64,000 nt of DNA, from IMG/VR virus record IMGVR_UViG_3300032132_000211, positions 1 through 64,000 of that record, one strand, 5' to 3'. Source of the stretch: a virus. The notes below the pieces were generated by a model, which saw only the letters and a program-made list of their open reading frames with translations, did not search any database and had not been told where the DNA came from. Positions 5,134 to 60,636 of this stretch are shown in pieces. How positions within the stretch are numbered: the first letter of the stretch is position 1; each line of letters opens with the position of its first letter. A program made the translations under genes and the position numbers.

Positions 5134-5421
5134 ATGAAGTTCTCAGGTAAACAACCTAAGAGTTTCACACGCCTTGTGGAGACGGTAGGACTAGAGGCAA
5201 CTCTAGCTCTTATCGTTGCCTTCGGGGGGAAGTCCTTGCATATCCCTAAAGTGAACAACTTCCTTATAAATAGAAGGAACAAGAAGATCTTTGAAGACCA
5301 CTCGTCTAAGAAGTATACGCAGAAACAATTAATGGCTAAGTGGGACATGCCTATGAGCACTATCTACACAATAGCCCGCAGATATAAAGCAGCAATGCTT
5401 GAGGCAGATAAAGATGAATAA
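5134..5421 (+). CDS. Mor-family transcription regulator
   Basis: The 95-residue protein matches the phage Mu Mor/C pattern: GLEATLALIVAFGGKSLHIPK (split here only by the beta-strand dimerisation segment), then a helix-turn-helix at about residues 63-86 (YTQKQLMAKWDM, PMSTIYTIARRY). Mor activators bind upstream of promoters that lack a good -35 and recruit RNA polymerase through the alpha and sigma subunits. It begins 3 nt after the recA stop and overlaps the next gene, so it is expressed with the recombination genes. It is a natural candidate to activate the late - strand promoters, which have an extended -10 and mostly no -35. Confidence 0.7.
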   Translation: MKFSGKQPKSFTRLVETVGLEATLALIVAFGGKSLHIPKVNNFLINRRNKKIFEDHSSKKYTQKQLMAKWDMPMSTIYTIARRYKAAMLEADKDE

Positions 5422-5791
5422 ACCATTAACGAAAGGGCAAGCAATCAAACTAACGTGTTACGGATGTTCGGCTGGAGAGAAGGCGGATGTAAAAAGCTGT
5501 CCGGTCAAGAGCTGCGCATTACATGCTTTTCGCATGGGCAAGAAATCACCGAAAGCAAAGGGCAGTATGCTATCGGCTATTAAGCAGTACTACTATGAGC
5601 TACAAGGGTTTTCCCGATCCGAGGTAAGGGATTTCCCTATCGGCATCCCGGTTGACGCCTGGAGAACTGGCGTGAATCCTAAAGAACCAGTCTTTGATAC
5701 TCCTGAGAATAGGGATGAATGGTTCCCCTGGAGGGTCCAAGAAAGAGAGGACAAACTACGTAGGAAAAAGGAAGCTAAGGAAGAGGGGTAG
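5414..5791 (+). CDS. Cysteine-cluster phage protein, unknown function
   Basis: 125 residues from ATG 5414, chosen over the upstream TTG because GAGG lies 9 nt before it. The N-terminal CYGCSAGEKADVKSCPVKSC carries C-x2-C and C-x4-C pairs, a conserved putative zinc-binding block seen in a family of small phage proteins of unknown function. The rest is basic (KKSPKAKG at the middle and RRKKEAKEEG at the end), suggesting nucleic acid binding. It overlaps the Mor-like gene by 8 bp. Confidence 0.65.
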   Translation: MNKPLTKGQAIKLTCYGCSAGEKADVKSCPVKSCALHAFRMGKKSPKAKGSMLSAIKQYYYELQGFSRSEVRDFPIGIPVDAWRTGVNPKEPVFDTPENRDEWFPWRVQEREDKLRRKKEAKEEG

Positions 5792-5816
5792 GCAAGGTAT
5801 AGGAGAGAAAAAACGA

Positions 5817-5845
5817 AGTGGAAATACGTCGTATAGCGCCACTTT
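5817..5845 (+). terminator. Possible intrinsic terminator after the recA/Mor operon
   Basis: AGTGG (5817-5821) pairs with CCACT and is followed by TTTTT, with an inner ATACG/CGTAT stem inside. It lies about 25 bp after the 5414-5791 gene. A second inverted repeat (TTTTTGGT with ACCAAAAA) follows within 45 bp. The stems are modest, so termination may be partial. Confidence 0.45.
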
Positions 5846-5909
5846 TTGGTCTAGAAAGTATGTATAGAGCACCAAAAATAGACCCCCACGGACAAGGAGA
5901 AATCAGGGA

Positions 5910-6959
5910 ATGAAGGTTCTGCTAGTTAGTGATCTTCATTTCCACATGTGGCCTGAGTTCGCCCATAAGAACTTGAAAGGCAGCAGCAGGTTGTGGGATA
6001 TCACAGTCGCATTGGGGCAGGTGTACGATCACGCCATAGCCAGAGACATTGAACACGTATTTATCCTAGGCGATATCTTTCACAAGCGCAACGTTGTGGA
6101 TGTCACAGTTTTGAATGCTTTTAATTCGCAGATTAAGTATGCGGAAAACAATTGTATAACGACTCACTTGTTGGTTGGAAATCACGATCAACCGACGTAT
6201 GAGGGCGGAAAGACCAAAAACAACGCTTTAGATTCATTTAATAGCCAATTTACGCACGTCTATCATACGAAATGGTATCTAAACCTCGACGGTGCAGCCA
6301 TAAGCCTATGTCCATATATTCATGATGAGAGGGAATTGGCGAGTGTGATTAAAAGAGAAGTTGAGTTCCTACGTGACAGCACTGGGCCGGGACCAACATA
6401 CTTCTTCGGGCACATGGGAATCTCTGGTGCAAAGATAATCGACACGGACTACACGATCCCACATCCTGTACCAGCTAAAGCATTTGACGACCTAACTGCG
6501 GCCTTCCTAGGACACTACCACACGCCCCAAAAGGTTACAGGTTCTAAGAACACTCACTATGTAGGATCACACGTACACCACACCTTCAGTGATGAGGGCC
6601 AAGAGAAGGGCTTCATAGAATTGAATCTAGACACGGGTAAGTTCAAGCGTATCAAAACAGATTACCCCAGCCTCAACACACTTCATGTCTCCTCGATGAA
6701 GGAGCTTATGGACGGGCTGTCAGACGACTACTTTAAAATCTATTTAAAAGACTTCGTTTTGAGTGAGAATGAATTACAAGAAGTCCGCAAAGTGGCTCGT
6801 GGATTTACTTTACTTCCAGAGGCGACAGAACGCGTGGCTAACACCAGCAAGACCTTTTCATTTAATTCAGCTTTAAAGGATTATATCAAGGACAACGAAC
6901 GGGTGCATCGTAAAGAGATTTATAGTAAAGCTAAGGAGCTTATGAATGTTAAAGATTAA
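5910..6959 (+). CDS. SbcD/Mre11-like nuclease (gp47 type)
   Basis: The 349-residue calcineurin-like phosphoesterase has all metal-binding motifs in order: SDLHFH (residues 7-12), GDIFHKRN (about 49-56), GNHD (about 90-93), GHMG (about 168-171) and GHYH (about 204-207). Followed directly by an SbcC/Rad50-like ATPase, it is the nuclease subunit of an SbcCD/gp46-gp47 complex that processes DNA ends for recombination-dependent replication. ACAAGGAG precedes the ATG. The 3' end overlaps the ATPase gene by 14 bp. Confidence 0.88.
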   Translation: MKVLLVSDLHFHMWPEFAHKNLKGSSRLWDITVALGQVYDHAIARDIEHVFILGDIFHKRNVVDVTVLNAFNSQIKYAENNCITTHLLVGNHDQPTYEGGKTKNNALDSFNSQFTHVYHTKWYLNLDGAAISLCPYIHDERELASVIKREVEFLRDSTGPGPTYFFGHMGISGAKIIDTDYTIPHPVPAKAFDDLTAAFLGHYHTPQKVTGSKNTHYVGSHVHHTFSDEGQEKGFIELNLDTGKFKRIKTDYPSLNTLHVSSMKELMDGLSDDYFKIYLKDFVLSENELQEVRKVARGFTLLPEATERVANTSKTFSFNSALKDYIKDNERVHRKEIYSKAKELMNVKD

Positions 6960-54198: not shown

Positions 54199-55644
54199 CT
54201 ATTCTGGCTTATCTTCTTCTTCGGGCTCTTCTGTGTCTTCTGGAGCGTTATCAACAGGGACAGGTGCCTCTGGTAGCTCTTCTCCTGTATGCTCCGATAA
54301 CGCTGGTGTACCTGAGTAACTGGCAAATCGTGGTGATGGTATATCGCCCCAATCTAGTATGGCTTCGTCTGGATATAGGTGGCCTAAAACCTTGTTTATG
54401 GGCCAGCCGACGCGCTCTACTAAGGTAGCAGCCGTCTCAGCTCTGACCTTCTTCATATCATCCGTCTCTCTAAGAGCCGGGATATTCGTGATATCAGGAA
54501 CAATTTCAAAATGCTGTGAGAACTCTTTCGTAAGGCTAGAGTTCAGCTTTGTTAGGATTCTGTTGGCTAGCGGTTGGATAGTACGCGACCAGAAATCAAT
54601 GTGCTGTTCTCGGACACCAGCACTGCGTCCTGAGCTGCTTTCCGCATTAAAGATGCCTACGATTGACGGCGGAACCTTGAGAATACTAAGGATTTCCTCT
54701 CTGCTATGCTTTCGCAGATTAAGGAAATCTAAATCTTTGGGATTGGGAGTTGTTTGTTGCCAATTCATTCCTCCAGACAAAATAATAATCTTACCGACCT
54801 TACTTGTGCCCTCATAACTCTGTTTCAGTTCTCTTTTTGCTCTACGATACTCTTCTTCGTTAAGGCCGTCCTCAACGGTGATAACGCCAGAAGGCCATGT
54901 CGCGTTGCTAAAGTACGATGCGTTCCAATTAAGAGCTTCCCAATCTAAGTCCATTGTCTGCCTGATCGCTGCAATTGGGGCTAACCCATAGTGGGACTCA
55001 CCTCGGGGATCAGGCATTTTTATATGGATCACCTCGTCAGGACTAAATGAGATTTTAATTTGGTTGACAGTGTACACATAGCCCTTGACAAACTTCGTAG
55101 GATGGGGCAGAACTTGCATGTTTTTTGGATTTAGTACATACAGCTCATGTGGTCGGCCTCTTGAGTCTAGTGCGGCTTTTTCAATATATGCGTTCCCCGT
55201 GAGAAGGAGGTGCATAGCCACTGTCTCCTTAAATTCTACTGCGCTCATCCAAGGATTTGGATTATTAAGAAGAGGGGACAGCCCAACGCCATCTCCCTTC
55301 ACAGCCTCGTTTGGCTGGCCTTTTCTGCGCTTATCAATTACCCTGAAATTAACTTGGCTTAATGCTCCAGCAATCGTGCTTACTCCAATGTAGAGCCAGA
55401 CGGATCTTGCATACTTATTCAGTAATGTAGAGTAGCCTTCGTCGCCCTGCATCCCTAGATCGCCAAATCCAGAGCCAGAACCAAAATAGTTGTTGGTGTA
55501 TACGTTTGAATCTTGGTGCGCTGCTCTAGCTGCCCCTGAATCCTTCGTGTCGATCTGGCCGTGCTGTTGCTCCAGCATTTCGATACGGGAATCTCTACGG
55601 GAACTAGGCAAAATTGCGCTAAGTGTATCTCTAATTAAGCCCAT
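54199..55644 (-). CDS. Portal protein (HK97 family)
   Basis: 481 residues, with ARSVWLYIGVSTIAGALSQVNF (RSVWLYIGVSTIAGAL), LLNNPNPWMSAVEFKE, HLLLTGNAYIEKA, EVIHIKMPDPRG and LRKHSREEILSILKVPPSIVG, the hallmark blocks of HK97-like portals. The C-terminus is acidic and Pro/Glu-rich. It forms the dodecameric DNA entry ring and docks the terminase. The ATG lies 5 nt after an extended -10 and has no RBS, so a leaderless mRNA is predicted. Confidence 0.92.
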   Translation of the reverse strand: MGLIRDTLSAILPSSRRDSRIEMLEQQHGQIDTKDSGAARAAHQDSNVYTNNYFGSGSGFGDLGMQGDEGYSTLLNKYARSVWLYIGVSTIAGALSQVNFRVIDKRRKGQPNEAVKGDGVGLSPLLNNPNPWMSAVEFKETVAMHLLLTGNAYIEKAALDSRGRPHELYVLNPKNMQVLPHPTKFVKGYVYTVNQIKISFSPDEVIHIKMPDPRGESHYGLAPIAAIRQTMDLDWEALNWNASYFSNATWPSGVITVEDGLNEEEYRRAKRELKQSYEGTSKVGKIIILSGGMNWQQTTPNPKDLDFLNLRKHSREEILSILKVPPSIVGIFNAESSSGRSAGVREQHIDFWSRTIQPLANRILTKLNSSLTKEFSQHFEIVPDITNIPALRETDDMKKVRAETAATLVERVGWPINKVLGHLYPDEAILDWGDIPSPRFASYSGTPALSEHTGEELPEAPVPVDNAPEDTEEPEEEDKPE

Positions 55645-55649
55645 AAGAT

Positions 55650-55677
55650 ATTATACCATAGTTATTTGCGGTTTCAG
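55650..55677 (-). promoter_or_regulatory. Late promoter, leaderless start of the portal gene
   Basis: On the - strand CTGAAA (55677-55672), 16-bp spacer, TGG-TATAAT (TATAAT 55655 to 55650), 5 nt, ATG 55644. It is the late site closest to the + strand TTGNAAAC family (CTGAAACCGCA). Confidence 0.65.
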
Positions 55678-55695
55678 TCATGTTTTACCCATGTT

Positions 55696-56454
55696 TTATA
55701 CAACAAATATACGCTTAGATACGTACGATATGCTGTCTATGGCCGCTCGTCTGGCAAACCAGAGGGCCATCATAGTATCATCGTGCCTGCCAATTGGATA
55801 AGAAGTCAATTCATTGATTAAAATGCCGCACAGATCCCTCTCATCCTCACCCATCATGGGAATAGTCCAGTTGTGCTTCTCAAACTCTACTGCCATTCGT
55901 GGGAGGCCGTTCTCAAGATCGTTCTTATTGACGGCGTTGGTTGTGAAAGACTTTACCGGCAGATCGGTCTTTCTTTTTAGTTCTTGGACAATGGCCTCCT
56001 GATATGCGTTGTTTTCAACCATAATTAAATTCGGGTCGAAATAATCAGCCCACAGCTCGATCTTCCTGATTTGTTCACTGAATGTCAGGCCCCGGTCTCG
56101 AAACATTCCGACTAAAGTCTTACGCCTCGTAGTTTTGTCACAAACTATAATTGAAATACAAAAGAAGTCACCTTGACTCTTCTTAGTAGCAATTGCGAGG
56201 TCAACTCCCATGAAACATTTATATGATTCTGGAAAAGTCCCTCTGAATGTGTTTTCTTGGCCTGGGAAGTATAGCTCCGCTTCTGAGTCAATACATTCTT
56301 CTACGTGTTCCGGCCTGAATAGAATGTCGTCCGTTGCCAAGGGCTGCTGACGCCAGCCACGAGCAAACTCTCGCTTCCCTACTTCCTCTTCTTTGTTTTT
56401 AAGTACCTTTGCGTTCCACTTCTCCCACAAAGGAACCTGCGCTGTAAGTTTCAT
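55696..56454 (-). CDS. Terminase large subunit, nuclease domain (separate ORF)
   Basis: 252 residues. Contains the RNase H-like nuclease motifs of TerL: MGVDLAIATKKSQGDFF (first Asp), IMVENNAYQEAIVQEL and HDDTMMALWFARR (last Asp pair), preceded by GKREFARGWRQQPL, the usual linker after the ATPase. It begins in an ATGA overlap with the ATPase fragment. A full-length TerL would need both; here the nuclease is a separate polypeptide. AAGGA lies before the ATG. No slippery heptamer fits the overlap, so re-initiation is likelier than frameshift. Confidence 0.82.
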   Translation of the reverse strand: MKLTAQVPLWEKWNAKVLKNKEEEVGKREFARGWRQQPLATDDILFRPEHVEECIDSEAELYFPGQENTFRGTFPESYKCFMGVDLAIATKKSQGDFFCISIIVCDKTTRRKTLVGMFRDRGLTFSEQIRKIELWADYFDPNLIMVENNAYQEAIVQELKRKTDLPVKSFTTNAVNKNDLENGLPRMAVEFEKHNWTIPMMGEDERDLCGILINELTSYPIGRHDDTMMALWFARRAAIDSISYVSKRIFVV

Positions 56455-57233
56455 ATTAAAATTTCCTTTAACTCGTGCCCGAAGTATTCCTTGTACTCTT
56501 CTACGTGCTGATCTGGAATGATTACGTCGCAGTCCAATCCAGAGAAGTCGTCAGCCACCTTCTGAATCAACACACCGTATTGATTGAGCATGATGGGGTC
56601 TGAGGTAACAAATCCAAGAAGGTCGTCTTCGTGCCAACGAGTACAAATTGCTATCACCTGGCGTTTATTTTCATTGCCTTCTACGTTTGGCTCCACACGA
56701 GACAGCCAGACCTGTGCGTAAGTTGCTAGATGCTGCTCTCGTGTTGATGGCTGCGATACCGCAGTTCTCTGGTCGAAGATATCGTCAACAAGCAGTATGT
56801 CTGCTCGTCCACCAATCGCTGAGGACATAATACCTTTAGCATCGACGCTTGCGTCTTTTGCGATTGTCTTACGTTCAACGAACAGCTTATGTTTGCTCCA
56901 TTCCTCCTTGTTTCCTGGAATAATGCCGGGGAACAAGGTTTTGAAGTCTTCGTCTGTTTCTATATAAGCCTTAATAGCAGAGAGCCGCTCTTTGGCAGCA
57001 TCGTCTGATAGGCATACTAGTTTAATTCTTAATGTAGGATCATTCCCTAGTAGAAATAGTGGCAGTGCGACTGCCGTGATCTGAGTGTTATGTGACACCA
57101 CGCCGTTAGTAACGTGGTTGTTAGTACCTTCGACTTCTAGGCCGATGGTTTGCTGGACGCCTACGTCTTCTACTGAAGCAACCTCGTCCCAGCCTTCATT
57201 CTCGTTATCTATTGCTAATTTAAGATTTGGCAT
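56451..57233 (-). CDS. Terminase ATPase C-part with C-terminal split intein half
   Basis: 260 residues. The first 49 residues are the C-terminal half of a split intein: block F WDEVASVEDVGVQQTIGLEV, given as VEDVGVQQTIGLEV, and block G NGVVSHN, followed by +1 Thr50. The extein then reads TQITAVALPLFLLGN ... Walker B ADILLVDDIFDQ, and the coupling motif AICTRWHEDDLLGF. After splicing the junction would recreate APMSSGK-TQIT, the Walker A lysine-threonine pair. The start is ATG 57233, overlapping the endonuclease gene by 14 bp. Confidence 0.88.
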   Translation of the reverse strand: MPNLKLAIDNENEGWDEVASVEDVGVQQTIGLEVEGTNNHVTNGVVSHNTQITAVALPLFLLGNDPTLRIKLVCLSDDAAKERLSAIKAYIETDEDFKTLFPGIIPGNKEEWSKHKLFVERKTIAKDASVDAKGIMSSAIGGRADILLVDDIFDQRTAVSQPSTREQHLATYAQVWLSRVEPNVEGNENKRQVIAICTRWHEDDLLGFVTSDPIMLNQYGVLIQKVADDFSGLDCDVIIPDQHVEEYKEYFGHELKEILI

Positions 57234-57558
57234 GTGGTTTAATCCTTGTAGCTGATACAGCTCTACCTTTGTATTTATACCTGTAGGCTTCTATTTTCTT
57301 ATCGGCTTCCGCTGACTGTTGTTCAGGGGTTTGCCAGGAGCAGTTGTGGACTGAATAGTTGCCCAAGTCCATTCGCCTGCCCAATGTAGTTCCAAATGGC
57401 CTTTCACCCATTTGCTTTAAAAATTTGTTGTAGTCTTTCCATGAAGGGTCGTACGTAACGCCTCTGCCGCCGTAATAAGCAAAATATATGTGCTCTGTGT
57501 TATCGCAGCGGTCTTTCATATAGAGCCAAGACTGATATGTTCCGTTAGGGTCTTTCAT
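57220..57558 (-). CDS. Free-standing homing-endonuclease-like gene in the split
   Basis: 112 residues carrying the block YGGRGVTYDPSWKDYNKFL, then GERPFGTTLGRRMDLGNYSVHNCSWQT, given as GERPFGTTLGRRMDLGNY and VHNCSWQTPEQQ. This G-x-TL-x-R-x-D-x-G-x-Y-x-x-x-NC-x-W pattern marks a family of small phage endonuclease-like (HNH or related) proteins that are often free-standing homing genes. Here Asp/Asn positions deviate slightly (RRMD for RIDN). It lies between the two intein halves and overlaps the start of the C-terminal half, so it was probably the agent that fractured the gene. Confidence 0.72.
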   Translation of the reverse strand: MKDPNGTYQSWLYMKDRCDNTEHIYFAYYGGRGVTYDPSWKDYNKFLKQMGERPFGTTLGRRMDLGNYSVHNCSWQTPEQQSAEADKKIEAYRYKYKGRAVSATRIKPHAKS

Positions 57559-57628
57559 CTAGTAACCAAAGTAGCAGTGCTACAAATTCCCCCAAAATTA
57601 TAAAGTCGTGTTCCATTTTGTGTTCTAT

Positions 57629-57662
57629 AACCCAGGGAAGCTGGTTAAAGCCTCCCTGGGTT
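57629..57662. terminator. 10-bp inverted repeat, possible terminator or mRNA stabiliser
   Basis: AACCCAGGGA and TCCCTGGGTT form a perfect 10-bp stem with a 14-nt loop. In the - direction no U run follows; in the + direction GTTACTTTT follows. It lies ~70 bp before the endonuclease start. Confidence 0.5.
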
Positions 57663-57754
57663 GTTACTTTTAGTCTCTTGATATCATCATCGACCGGCCT
57701 GGCTCCCTCTTCCCCTTCTTTTCAGTCGAAGCTTTGGGTGCGAAGCACTGGATC

Positions 57755-57876
57755 TTTTTTTCTTCATCTTCTTTTTACTCTTCTTTTATTTCTCTTCTCT
57801 TCTCTTTATTTCTTATTATTTCTTCTTCTCTTCTTTCTTCTTCTTTTGTTTTTTCTTCTGTTGTTTCTTTATAAAG
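57755..57876. repeat. ~120-bp pyrimidine-rich tract
   Basis: The + strand is almost entirely T and C with occasional A (TTCTTCTCTTCTTTCTTC-like), so the - strand transcript would be rich in GAAGAAG. Its reading on either strand gives only low-complexity peptides. It may be an imperfect triplex-prone sequence or a relic of an eroded gene. Confidence 0.75.
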
Positions 57877-57988
57877 GGTCGCCACTCAGTTACCTATATG
57901 TCGTTGAAAACATTCGGGAATGCTGACGTTGCCCCGGTCGGTAGGATTCTGGTCCTACCCCATGGCCCATGTACTTGAGGATCTCCAT

Positions 57989-59140
57989 TTATACGATTCC
58001 CAGAATCCTCGTAAATTCGGGTATTTGTTCATCTTTAAGTACAACAGCAATAACGCGCTTTATTTCAGGGTCCCAGGTTACTCCACTCACATTATCAGGC
58101 TCTTCAGCATCATTGCCTACTATACCTGCCTGTGCGTGAGGTTGTCGCTGCTTTTGTTGTGTGAGTAGTTCTTCGTCTAGAAGTATTAAATTCTCCACTG
58201 AACTCTCCCCACATGTATATTGTAGCAAACGCTGTATGCCGTTTGCAAGGCTTTTCGAGTCCGTTGCCATATAAATTATCTTCTGCTCCTTGTCCCATAC
58301 GCCAAGACAGTCGAAATAGCCTTTTAAGAAGAACTTCACTACCTTTTTACTATGTAAACTGATTTGATTTATGATGTCTTGTTCACACAGGTCGTAGGTC
58401 CCGATAGCCCGTGTGTAGTAGTCAGACTTGTAATCCTTGTTCTTACTGAACTTGTAAGGGTCGAATTCCACATCGCGTTCCTTACTAAAATCAGAGTAAA
58501 AGCCGATAGCACCGTCCTTGGCTCCGTAGTAGTCAGTGTTCTTAGCCAGTATACATCCAATCATGTACGCGTCTGTAGTCGTGTACATGTCTAGGACGTG
58601 TTCCTTCTCCCATTTTATAAGTGTCTTTACTTTATCCTTCTTAGGACGCAGATCCTGCGCCTCTATCCAGCCCGAGTCTGTCAAGAACGGGTGATCTTCG
58701 CTGACGGTAATTCTCCTTCCACTTTTAAATGTGACTTCAATGCACTTCTTCTCAAAGCTCTCCTTCTTGCTAACTGGCTTCCATACTGGCTTCCTGTTCT
58801 CTTCATCATAGCTGAGAACCCTGTCACCAGGCTCGATTGACTCAGCTTCTACATAACCGGCCTGTGTTAATACGGGTGTATCTGGGGCCATGCATTTACC
58901 CGATGACATTGGGGCCAGGATAAGGCAATTCAAATTGTTAGCTTTACAAAAGGATATGTGTCGTATCCAAGTCTTTTGTAGCTCGGCTAGTTCAATCTTA
59001 GCGCCGGAGCTTTCGTCCTTGACTACATATTCACAGAACGCCATGAAGTCTTCTCTGGCATTCTGCCTCTTCTTCTCCTCTAGGAGACCTTCTCGTTCTT
59101 TAAGTAGAGCTTCTTGTTGCTTCAGTATTGATGCGTCCAT
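57989..59140 (-). CDS. Terminase N-terminal part with N-terminal split intein half
   Basis: 383 residues. Residues 1-82 are the TerL start, ending ILAPMSSGK, i.e. Walker A cut after the Lys. Cys83 begins the intein: CMAPDTPVLTQAGYVEAES (block A), then block B RITVSEDHPFLTDSGW. From about residue 190 there is a DOD/LAGLIDADG-like endonuclease region (AYMIGCILAKNTDYYG and FFLKGYFDCLGVW). In active enzymes both blocks carry an acidic catalytic residue in a D-G pair; here they read KNTD and CLG, so the domain is probably inactive. The ORF stops after ILGIV with no C-terminal intein motifs; these are on 56451-57233. Confidence 0.88.
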   Translation of the reverse strand: MDASILKQQEALLKEREGLLEEKKRQNAREDFMAFCEYVVKDESSGAKIELAELQKTWIRHISFCKANNLNCLILAPMSSGKCMAPDTPVLTQAGYVEAESIEPGDRVLSYDEENRKPVWKPVSKKESFEKKCIEVTFKSGRRITVSEDHPFLTDSGWIEAQDLRPKKDKVKTLIKWEKEHVLDMYTTTDAYMIGCILAKNTDYYGAKDGAIGFYSDFSKERDVEFDPYKFSKNKDYKSDYYTRAIGTYDLCEQDIINQISLHSKKVVKFFLKGYFDCLGVWDKEQKIIYMATDSKSLANGIQRLLQYTCGESSVENLILLDEELLTQQKQRQPHAQAGIVGNDAEEPDNVSGVTWDPEIKRVIAVVLKDEQIPEFTRILGIV

Positions 59141-59685
59141 TATAAGTCAACCTTCTCCTTTTTATCCATCGCCTCAAACTCAGCATCCAAGGCATCAAGT
59201 TTGGCTTTGTTTTCATCTAGCTTATCTTTGATCTCTTTAGGATTGTCAATCTTGACTTCGTGCTCATGCTTAACAACCTTGTCTGGTTCACCCATAAGCG
59301 ACCTTACTAGGTCTACTGCATTCGCCATAGAAGAAGAAAGCTCTTTGATCGTAGCCTTCTCAATCTTATCAGAGTCAACAATTGCCGCCGATGCCATGCT
59401 TATGAATGCTACCATGTTGATAATGGTTTCTTTTTTCTTAATATTATAATATGCTTCTAATTCTTGATCGTCATCAAAGTAAGTTTTTAATTCACCTTTA
59501 CGATACTGTGAATACATATCCCAAGAAAGCTTTGCCAAGTCGGGTCCCGCCGCTAGCATTATTTCAGATGTTTTGCTGTTGGCCTCCTTAACCTTCTTCT
59601 CAAGATCCTTCACAGCCACCACGGAGTCGGCTTCTTTATCCGCCTCTAGCTCCTTCTCGTCAAACTTTACAATTTTCTTTGTCAT
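59140..59685 (-). CDS. Putative terminase small subunit
   Basis: 181 residues, largely helical, ending in an acidic coiled-coil (DKLDENKAKLDALDAEFEAM). It is coupled to the terminase large subunit by a TAATG overlap, the usual place for TerS, which recognises the packaging site. No clear helix-turn-helix was recognised, so the assignment depends on position and general composition. Confidence 0.5.
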   Translation of the reverse strand: MTKKIVKFDEKELEADKEADSVVAVKDLEKKVKEANSKTSEIMLAAGPDLAKLSWDMYSQYRKGELKTYFDDDQELEAYYNIKKKETIINMVAFISMASAAIVDSDKIEKATIKELSSSMANAVDLVRSLMGEPDKVVKHEHEVKIDNPKEIKDKLDENKAKLDALDAEFEAMDKKEKVDL

Positions 59686-59696
59686 AAGTATCTCAA

Positions 59697-59924
59697 CTAG
59701 TTAAAATTTTTGTCTCGGCTAGAAACGTGTTGTAGGATTAACGCAGCTAACCTCTCTAGATCTACGTCGCCTAATATGAACACGCTCTTGTTAACCCCTG
59801 ACTTAGAATCTACAAACAGGAAGAGTCCTTCTATATCACCTTGCAAGGATAGCTCTTCTACTGTGTCGCTGAATCGGTCCAACACCTCATCATGCGTGTC
59901 AGCCTCCAGATCTACAACTTTCAC
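59697..59924 (-). CDS. Unknown small acidic protein
   Basis: 75 residues from GTG 59924, overlapping the upstream stop (GTGA). VKVVDLEADTHDEVLD-like start and two helices (FSDTVEELSLQGD, DLERLAALILQHV). No family recognised; co-transcribed with the terminase genes. Confidence 0.5.
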   Translation of the reverse strand: MKVVDLEADTHDEVLDRFSDTVEELSLQGDIEGLFLFVDSKSGVNKSVFILGDVDLERLAALILQHVSSRDKNFN

Positions 59925-60154
59925 TTCTTTGCCCGATCCCTATACTTCTTGTGGTGCTGCTTCACCTTTTCAGGGTGCTCAGTTTTCCAATTCTTATGGT
60001 AGTCCGGGTGCTCGGCCTTCCATTTACGATAATAATTGCCTTTACACGTTTTGCAAGGATAAACGATCTTGTTTGTCGTTTTCCTGGTATAGAATTGATC
60101 TTCGGGCTGGTCCGTTCCACATTTTTTACAATGATATGTTAATTTGTCCGTCAT
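59921..60154 (-). CDS. Small zinc-binding basic protein, first gene of late operon
   Basis: 77 residues: YHCKKCGTDQPEDQFY and YPCKTCKGNYYRKW give a C-x2-C / C-x2-C zinc ribbon, followed by basic repeats (KAEHPDYHKNWKTEHPEKV). Similar zinc-ribbon modules precede HNH or endonuclease VII domains in phages, but no nuclease domain follows here. AAGGAGAAAAG is upstream. It may bind DNA or RNA; function unknown. Confidence 0.6.
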   Translation of the reverse strand: MTDKLTYHCKKCGTDQPEDQFYTRKTTNKIVYPCKTCKGNYYRKWKAEHPDYHKNWKTEHPEKVKQHHKKYRDRAKK

Positions 60155-60182
60155 TTAATCTTTTCTCCTTATCATATATGCT

Positions 60183-60191
60183 ATTATATCA
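60183..60191 (-). promoter_or_regulatory. Late-type extended -10 for the late operon
   Basis: On the - strand TGA-TATAAT, TATAAT 60188 to 60183, ~30 nt before ATG 60154 with an RBS in between. It heads the long - strand late transcription unit. No clear -35. Confidence 0.55.
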
Positions 60192-60209
60192 TATATAGAC
60201 TTTTTTTTA

Positions 60210-60223
60210 TTGAGAAAACTCAA
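60210..60223. promoter_or_regulatory. Palindrome TTGAG-AAAA-CTCAA in the divergent promoter region
   Basis: A perfect 5-bp-arm inverted repeat lies between the late - strand start (60154) and the + strand gene at 60244, just before the latter's AAAGGAG. It could be an operator serving both directions. Confidence 0.5.
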
Positions 60224-60243
60224 AAGGAGATAAAATAAATACT

Positions 60244-60636
60244 ATGGCCAAGCTACCATTTCGCAAACTTAAGATAGGCCCACATAAATGGGACATTAAA
60301 TTTGCTCCTTTGAACGATGAGGACCATCGTAGCAAGAAGTATAAGAAGGAAATGGAAGGTTGTGGCAAGCACGCTGTATTTTTTGGTGAGACTGATTTTG
60401 AGAAAACCCTGATTAGGTTGAACGAGAATATGGATGAGGAGATGATGGGGGAAGTAATCGTGCATGAGATTATTCACATCGCAATAGACGAATGCAATCT
60501 TAGAGCACAAATCAAAGTAGGTGATGAAGAGCAAATCGTTCAGAACCTAGGTGTGTGGCTGCTGATGGCCTTCAGAGATAACCCTTGCCTCAAAGATATC
60601 ATCTTCCCTCCTAAAAAGAATAGAAAAAAGCGTTGA
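60244..60636 (+). CDS. SprT/zincin-like metalloprotease-fold protein
   Basis: 130 residues with HEIIHIAID (His74, Glu75, His78), the HExxH zinc-binding motif, in an otherwise short protein with KIGPHKWDIKFAPLND upstream and a basic end (PPKKNRKKR). Similar small phage proteins with HExxH are common in early regions; the substrate is unknown. AAAGGAG lies ~13 nt upstream of the ATG, longer than usual. The stop codon TGA lies within the -35 of the thyX promoter. Confidence 0.7.
   Translation: MAKLPFRKLKIGPHKWDIKFAPLNDEDHRSKKYKKEMEGCGKHAVFFGETDFEKTLIRLNENMDEEMMGEVIVHEIIHIAIDECNLRAQIKVGDEEQIVQNLGVWLLMAFRDNPCLKDIIFPPKKNRKKR

What the first reader, a model, noticed from the sequence alone, without database searches (positions are those of the whole stretch)
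57989..58580. Decayed DOD endonuclease domain in the N-terminal intein half
The N-terminal intein half still carries a DOD/LAGLIDADG-like domain (AYMIGCILAKNTDYYG; FFLKGYFDCLGVW), but the usual acidic catalytic residue of both blocks is replaced. A free-standing endonuclease of another family sits next door. This looks like loss of the resident endonuclease followed by takeover, an intermediate state rarely seen.
Basis: partly seen in the sequence, partly recalled or inferred. Interest (0 to 1): 0.7.

Follow-up and report, generated by a model that had tools for sequence, protein, structure and literature searches.

The report
Split terminase intein, both endonucleases dead
A virus's DNA-packaging motor gene is broken in two by a self-splicing protein insert whose built-in DNA-cutting domain has lost its catalytic residues, and the second DNA-cutting gene sitting in the break has apparently lost its own too, so this looks like a parasite that can still splice but probably no longer spreads.

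Summary
The N-half of a split intein in terminase TerL (57992-58894, -) carries a whole two-subdomain LAGLIDADG (DOD) domain. Both catalytic acids are replaced: block C by Lys (K118 of the intein, 58541-58543) and block E by Leu (L197, 58304-58306). The closest relative (L139, an uninterrupted intein at the same Walker-A Lys|Thr site) has Asp at both places. The splicing residues are kept.

The 'takeover' fails on its own criterion. The PacI-like HNH gene in the break (57220-57558) has lost its metal-binding acid (Gly60; Asp or Glu in 85 of 85 relatives) and the helix Asn (Glu84; Asn in 78 of 85), and has no Shine-Dalgarno. The 'rare intermediate' is also doubtful. Acid-less DOD domains are the rule in same-site TerL inteins of Caulobacter and Brevundimonas giant phages, where pairwise dN/dS of the dead domain is 0.02-0.34. 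A degenerate PhoVMA intein has been crystallised.

Best reading: a fractured-gene split intein, trans-splicing but probably immobile, holding the remains of two homing endonucleases. New here is the complete dead DOD kept on a split half. Order of events and activity are inferred; no close relative was found.

The parts
58895..59140 (-). TerL N-extein (residues 1-82), up to and including the Walker-A Lys (...APMSSGK)
   Evidence: homologous to empty-site TerL ...APWGHGKTEQ in L001 and L155
58595..58894 (-). Intein N-half, Hint splicing part: Cys1 and block A, block B SEDHPF
   Evidence: TIGR01445 intein_Nterm E=5.8e-11, 43.2 bits vs cut-off 24.5; PT-HINT E=1.7e-8
57992..58591 (-). Catalytically dead LAGLIDADG (DOD) domain, intein residues 102-301, both subdomains; ends at the last strand and helix (IKRVIAVVLKDEQIPEFTRILGIV)
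58541..58543 (-). Block C catalytic position: Lys118 of the intein (P0001 K200) in place of Asp
   Evidence: Asp in L139, L010, L149, L151
58304..58306 (-). Block E catalytic position: Leu197 of the intein (P0001 L279) in place of Asp/Glu
   Evidence: gapless profile alignment
57559..57988 (-). Spacer of 430 bp with no recognisable intein remnant: purine-rich tract (about 57756-57866) and a hairpin (57629-57662)
   Evidence: three-frame translation; repeats
57220..57558 (-). Free-standing PacI-like HNH gene, 112 aa, with Gly60, Glu84 and Gln49 at conserved positions; stop overlaps the C-half start by 14 bp; no Shine-Dalgarno
   Evidence: phrog_8790 E=1.4e-27
57087..57233 (-). Intein C-half, 49 aa, blocks F and G, ending VVSHN; own Shine-Dalgarno AAGGA
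   Evidence: Intein_splicing C-end match E=0.0012; L139 WDRVVAVEDLGGQETYALEVDGYQSYVTEDVVVHN
56451..57086 (-). TerL ATPase remainder (C-extein, +1 Thr)
   Evidence: phrog_38 E=2.2e-26
55696..56454 (-). TerL nuclease domain as a separate ORF, overlapping the ATPase ORF by ATGA
   Evidence: Terminase_6C, phrog_38; separate also in L139 and L002

Best explanation
This is a naturally split, trans-splicing intein in phage TerL, inserted at the Walker-A Lys|Thr junction in a fractured-gene arrangement. It descends from a one-piece TerL intein with an active LAGLIDADG endonuclease, as L139 still appears to have. The resident endonuclease lost both catalytic acids. The intein gene was broken after the DOD domain, where L139 has about 110 further residues before the C-half, and a PacI-like HNH homing endonuclease gene lies in the break. 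That HNH has since lost its metal-binding acid and helix Asn. Both halves keep the residues for splicing (Cys1, block B His, His-Asn, +1 Thr), so the TerL ATPase can be rebuilt by trans-splicing while neither endonuclease is expected to cut. Shown: anatomy, residue losses, intact relative, empty-site relatives. Inferred: trans-splicing, lack of cleavage, order of events, and that the HNH once drove homing here.
For: Split ORFs and conserved splicing blocks. Same-site one-piece intein with both Asp in L139. Empty sites in L001 and L155. Leu in the Asp column of block E in a gapless profile alignment; I-DmoI-like fold over both subdomains. HNH acid at position 60 in 85 of 85 relatives but Gly here; Asn84 in 78 of 85 but Glu here; Asp49 in 84 of 85 but Gln here. 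The HNH model has a strand 58-61, strand 73-76, helix 78-95 core (pLDDT 86), with PacI, Gme HNH and I-HmuI among its structural alignments. The spacing D60-R61...N84 equals Gme D53-H54...N77, and R61...Y68 equals PacI R93...Y100 (PMC3765158). Shine-Dalgarno before the C-half but none before the HNH.
Against: One record only; no close relative to show the order or rate of decay. Missing residues do not prove missing cleavage. The DOD reading frame is still open over 201 codons (chance 2e-6 for random sequence of that base make-up), although an early stop would cost the intein nothing if the domain were useless; that fits recent loss or a kept non-catalytic role. The intein model is of low confidence, so the block C assignment rests on the motif and the structural offset more than on a profile.
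Confidence: 0.6

Rival explanations
1. One reading: the HNH took over homing after the DOD died and is active now, cutting intein-free terL and carrying intein and HNH together (collaborative homing).
For: HNH ORF intact, predicted with high confidence, placed exactly between the intein halves. Collaborative homing and HEG turnover are described for phage terL introns (PMC10448857).
Against: Gly at the position that is Asp or Glu in 85 of 85 relatives; Glu for the helix Asn; Gln for Asp49. No Shine-Dalgarno. Only 112 aa, with no DNA-binding domain recognised. No sampled relative lies near a TerL of this family.
Confidence: 0.12
2. The dead DOD domain is not decaying but kept for a non-catalytic job, such as stabilising the N-half, helping the halves associate, or binding the terL DNA.
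For: Same-site TerL inteins of Caulobacter and Brevundimonas giant phages have all lost both acids, yet pairwise dN/dS over the DOD is 0.13, 0.19, 0.30, 0.34 and 0.02 in Caulobacter phages. Here the frame is open to the very end of the domain. Dead LAGLIDADG domains have other uses, as in WhiA, which aligns with the model (Z 10.3). PMC8966425 reports that a HEN domain likely contributes to splicing.
Against: Constraint was measured in other phages, not in this lineage, with few sites. Subdomain 1 here looks shortened. Mini-inteins and known split inteins splice without a HEN domain.
Confidence: 0.25
3. One or both endonucleases are active by an unusual catalytic residue set.
For: Other acids lie nearby (DOD Asp in TDYYG and in the FDC of block E; HNH Asp64, Glu84). 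Twelve HNH relatives carry Glu at position 60, so the site varies.
Against: The nearby acids are off the aligned positions; the Asp of FDC matches the first, non-catalytic Asp of the FDADG motif. No relative has a neutral residue at HNH position 60.
Confidence: 0.06
4. Assembly or sequencing artefact: a one-piece intein gene wrongly broken.
For: Metagenomic record, no second copy found.
Against: The break holds a 430-bp spacer and a whole HNH ORF, and the C-half has its own start and Shine-Dalgarno. The residue changes in both endonucleases lie at several separate sites, more than one sequencing error could give.
Confidence: 0.03

Closest known systems
Fractured genes with split inteins and free-standing endonucleases (Dassa et al. 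2009, cited in PMC3229294 and PMC7090010; the paper itself was not readable here)
   Same: Host gene broken inside an intein, halves on separate ORFs, free-standing endonuclease gene in between. The same layout with a GIY-YIG-like gene was met in L141.
   Different: The N-half here also carries a complete dead LAGLIDADG domain, the break lies after that domain, and the free-standing gene is a PacI-like HNH lacking conserved catalytic residues. From memory, the described split inteins have no nested DOD.
AceL-TerL and GOS-TerL naturally split inteins (PMC11766414)
   Same: Natural split inteins named for TerL.
   Different: Those have very short N-halves (25 and 37 aa); here the N-half is 301 aa with a DOD domain. 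Whether the insertion site is the same was not tested.
Degenerate HEN inteins such as PhoVMA (PMC8966425)
   Same: Intact LAGLIDADG architecture, active-site acids missing in blocks C and E, splicing domain kept.
   Different: PhoVMA is one piece and no second endonuclease gene is described in it.
TerL inteins of Caulobacter and Brevundimonas giant phages (Dolichocephalovirinae)
   Same: Same Walker-A insertion site, DOD domain with both acids lost.
   Different: One piece; no endonuclease gene inside; Pro rather than Cys as first intein residue.
PacI-like phage HNH endonucleases (PMC12724721)
   Same: Motif GGRG...W...F...MG...R...Y...NC.W...Q; two strands and a helix at the active site.
   Different: Metal-binding acid and helix Asn replaced.

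Membership tests
Split intein in a fractured gene | Hint blocks A/B and F/G on separate ORFs flanking parts of one host gene | tested here: met
   TerL parts on both sides
Split intein in a fractured gene | Free-standing endonuclease-family gene between the halves | tested here: met
   HNH families, E down to 1.4e-27
Split intein in a fractured gene | Conserved splicing residues (Cys1, block B His, His-Asn, nucleophile at +1) | tested here: met
   C83, SEDH, SHN and T50 by sequence
Split intein in a fractured gene | Protein trans-splicing | not testable with these tools
   needs expression of both halves
LAGLIDADG (DOD) domain | Two-subdomain LAGLIDADG fold | tested here: met
   Pfam LAGLIDADG_3; I-DmoI Z 12.6 over both subdomains, on a low-confidence model with subdomain 1 weak
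Active LAGLIDADG homing endonuclease | Acidic residue at the end of both LAGLIDADG helices | tested here: not met
   Lys118 and Leu197
Active LAGLIDADG homing endonuclease | Cleavage of the intein-free allele | not testable with these tools
   needs protein and DNA
Degenerate HEN intein (PhoVMA-like) | HEN architecture kept, active-site acids lost, splicing blocks kept | tested here: met
PacI-like HNH endonuclease | Family motif and two-strand-plus-helix metal fold | tested here: met
   W11, R17, C18, G33, W40, R61, Y68, N72, C73, W75, Q81 kept; model
PacI-like HNH endonuclease | Metal-binding acid before the catalytic Arg/His, and helix Asn/His | tested here: not met
   Gly60 (85 of 85 relatives acidic); Glu84 (78 of 85 Asn, 3 His)
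Collaborative homing locus | Free-standing nuclease cuts at the insertion site of the neighbouring element | not testable with these tools
   no cleavage assay; the catalytic residues argue against it

The most novel reading that the evidence does not exclude
The catalytically dead LAGLIDADG domain has been put to use in the split terminase intein, as an assembly or stability module for the N-half or a DNA-binding regulator of terL, and is kept by selection, as the dN/dS of the dead same-site domains in Caulobacter phages hints. The HNH in the break is then the failed remnant of a later invasion.
Probability: 0.2. Interest if true: 0.6.

Novelty: new variant of a known kind. Interest (0 to 1): 0.42.

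Why it matters
How internal endonucleases are swapped for free-standing ones is an open point; PMC10448857 proposes turnover and purging to explain collaborative homing. This locus keeps both generations in one place, each with its catalytic residues gone, so it is a snapshot in which the first endonuclease was not purged before the second also died. It also points to a testable anomaly: acid-less DOD domains in TerL inteins at this site evolve under constraint in other phages, which the simple decay model of the homing cycle does not predict.

Tried and rejected
Close relatives: the N-half found none in IMG/VR, the HNH alone found none, the TerL ATPase found only L139, L001, L002 and L155 at 38-42% identity, and GTDB genomes gave none; so no dN/dS for this lineage. 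Nucleotide search of phage records: no match. Rfam on 55600-60300: no RNA family, so no group I intron in the spacer was found. The spacer was translated for a leftover of L139's extra C-terminal region: none recognisable. PDB sequence search with the HNH family profile: only chance hits; Foldseek gave no confident match, and VIA gave PacI at Z 5.3, tied with an unrelated chain, so the active-site mapping rests mainly on conservation and on residue spacing given in PMC3765158. GC make-up does not mark the DOD or HNH as foreign. The original fractured-gene paper (PMC2677866) is not held.

Full report
What is there. The window lies in a 68-kb IMG/VR virus record. On the minus strand a terminase large subunit gene is in three ORFs. 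ORF 57989-59140 holds the TerL N-terminus up to the Walker-A lysine (...LILAPMSSGK), then an intein N-half that begins with Cys. ORF 56451-57233 holds 49 residues of intein C-half ending VVSHN and then the rest of the ATPase domain from Thr. ORF 55696-56454 is the TerL nuclease domain, overlapping the ATPase ORF by ATGA. Between the first two lie a 430-bp spacer and an HNH-family gene, 57220-57558. The splicing blocks are sound: intein_Nterm 43.2 bits against a cut-off of 24.5, Cys1, SEDH in block B, His-Asn at the end and +1 Thr.

The DOD domain. Intein residues 102-301 (57992-58591) form a LAGLIDADG domain. LAGLIDADG_3 is matched at E=1e-4. A profile of five intein DODs, four of them with both acids, aligns without a gap from residue 177 to 225, and the Asp column of block E holds Leu197. 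An AlphaFold model made with 12 sequences is weak (mean pLDDT 57; 71-81 around block E; below 50 at 120-172 and 238-280), yet 102-300 aligns with I-DmoI 5-180 at Z 12.6, 4.0 A over 138 residues, and the whole with PI-PfuI at Z 12.3. At the start-of-helix offset I-DmoI Asp21 corresponds to Lys118 (I-DmoI numbering is from memory). The last strand and helix of subdomain 2 are the last residues of the ORF, so the break lies just behind the domain. Subdomain 1 is recognisable only by its helix and seems shortened.

The likely ancestor state. L139 (IMGVR_UViG_3300036766_000949) has a one-piece 411-aa intein at exactly the same junction (...ILAPYGTGK / C...HN / TTLPGIALPLYLLG), with Asp in both blocks (LLGYFVGDGC, YLGAYVTCDGTV), and its TerL too is divided into ATPase and nuclease ORFs. 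L001 and L155 are empty-site relatives (...APWGHGKTEQ...). Vibrio phage 1.238 (L149), L010 and L151 have same-site inteins with both acids. Compared with L139, the window lost both acids and about 110 residues between the DOD and the C-half, and gained a break with an HNH gene.

The neighbour is decayed too. Eighty-five HNH relatives (80 from IMG/VR, five from phage records), aligned together, keep an acid at position 60 (73 Asp, 12 Glu); the window has Gly. Position 84 is Asn in 78 and His in 3; the window has Glu. Position 49 is Asp in 84; the window has Gln. At columns conserved in at least 85% the window breaks 7 of 27; the most by any relative is 6, and 80 of 85 break three or fewer. The model is good (pLDDT 86) and shows strand 58-61, strand 73-76, helix 78-95, with residue 60 in the first strand and 84 on the helix. 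PMC3765158 gives Gme HNH active-site residues Asp53, His54 and Asn77, and the PacI site as H42-R93-Y100-N113 with Arg in place of the usual His. The family's D60-R61 and N84 have the Gme spacing exactly, and R61-Y68 the PacI spacing. So two positions that correspond to active-site residues are both changed here. The HNH also lacks a Shine-Dalgarno, whereas the C-half and the nuclease ORF have one. A third piece, ORF 59921-60154, matches only the N-terminal half of endonuclease VII families.

Is a dead DOD rare? No. TerL inteins of Caulobacter and Brevundimonas giant phages, inserted at the same site, lack both acids throughout the sample. The dead domains in the Caulobacter phages are not drifting freely: pairwise dN/dS (Nei-Gojobori) over the DOD is 0.13, 0.19, 0.30, 0.34 and 0.02 in five close pairs, similar to the Hint part. 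These are small samples. In archaea the PhoVMA intein has been crystallised with both acids missing and its architecture kept, and grafting the active-site residues restored cutting (PMC8966425). So catalytic loss with domain retention is a known state that can last.

How it most likely works. The two halves associate, splice in trans and rebuild the ATPase part of TerL, which then works with the separately encoded nuclease domain. Neither endonuclease is likely to cut, so the element is probably inherited vertically. Anatomy and residue losses are shown; splicing, lack of cutting, and the order (DOD loss, break with HNH, HNH loss) are inferred. The open reading frame through the whole DOD (chance 2e-6) means either recent loss or a kept non-catalytic role; this cannot be decided without close relatives, which were sought and not found.

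Relation to what is known. The layout is that of fractured genes with split inteins (Dassa et al. 2009, cited in PMC3229294 and PMC7090010, not readable here). AceL-TerL and GOS-TerL are natural split TerL inteins with N-halves of 25 and 37 residues (PMC11766414). PMC10448857 proposes that collaborative homing arises by turnover, with a free-standing nuclease gained and the internal one purged. This locus fits turnover but shows the internal one unpurged and the newcomer damaged as well. I rate it a new variant of a known kind.

Noticed in passing
55696-57086: TerL ATPase and nuclease domains are separate ORFs overlapping by ATGA. The same division is seen in L139 and, with about 500 bp between the ORFs, in L002, so it looks like a lineage feature and not an error.
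   Followed up: partly
59921-60154: A 77-aa ORF matches only the N-terminal half of endonuclease VII families: a truncated third endonuclease near the terminase genes.
   Followed up: partly
L141:4374-6796: RecA/UvsX-like gene fractured by a split intein with a free-standing GIY-YIG-like ORF between the halves (5279-6208), a fractured gene of another kind.
   Followed up: no
L140, L142, L143, L145, L147, L148, L150: Acid-less DOD domains in TerL inteins of Caulobacter phages show low pairwise dN/dS (0.02-0.34), suggesting that dead intein endonucleases are kept by selection.
   Followed up: partly
L051:2857-6585: Vibrio phage 1.238 TerL has a second intein-like start near its C-terminus (CSSGDTLIKERLPSGKVV...), followed by a separate 'hedgehog/hint' gene: possibly a second, split intein in the same gene.
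   Followed up: no
57756-57866: About 110 bp of almost pure pyrimidine (+ strand) in the spacer between the N-half and the HNH gene, and a 14-bp inverted repeat at 57629-57662.
   Followed up: no
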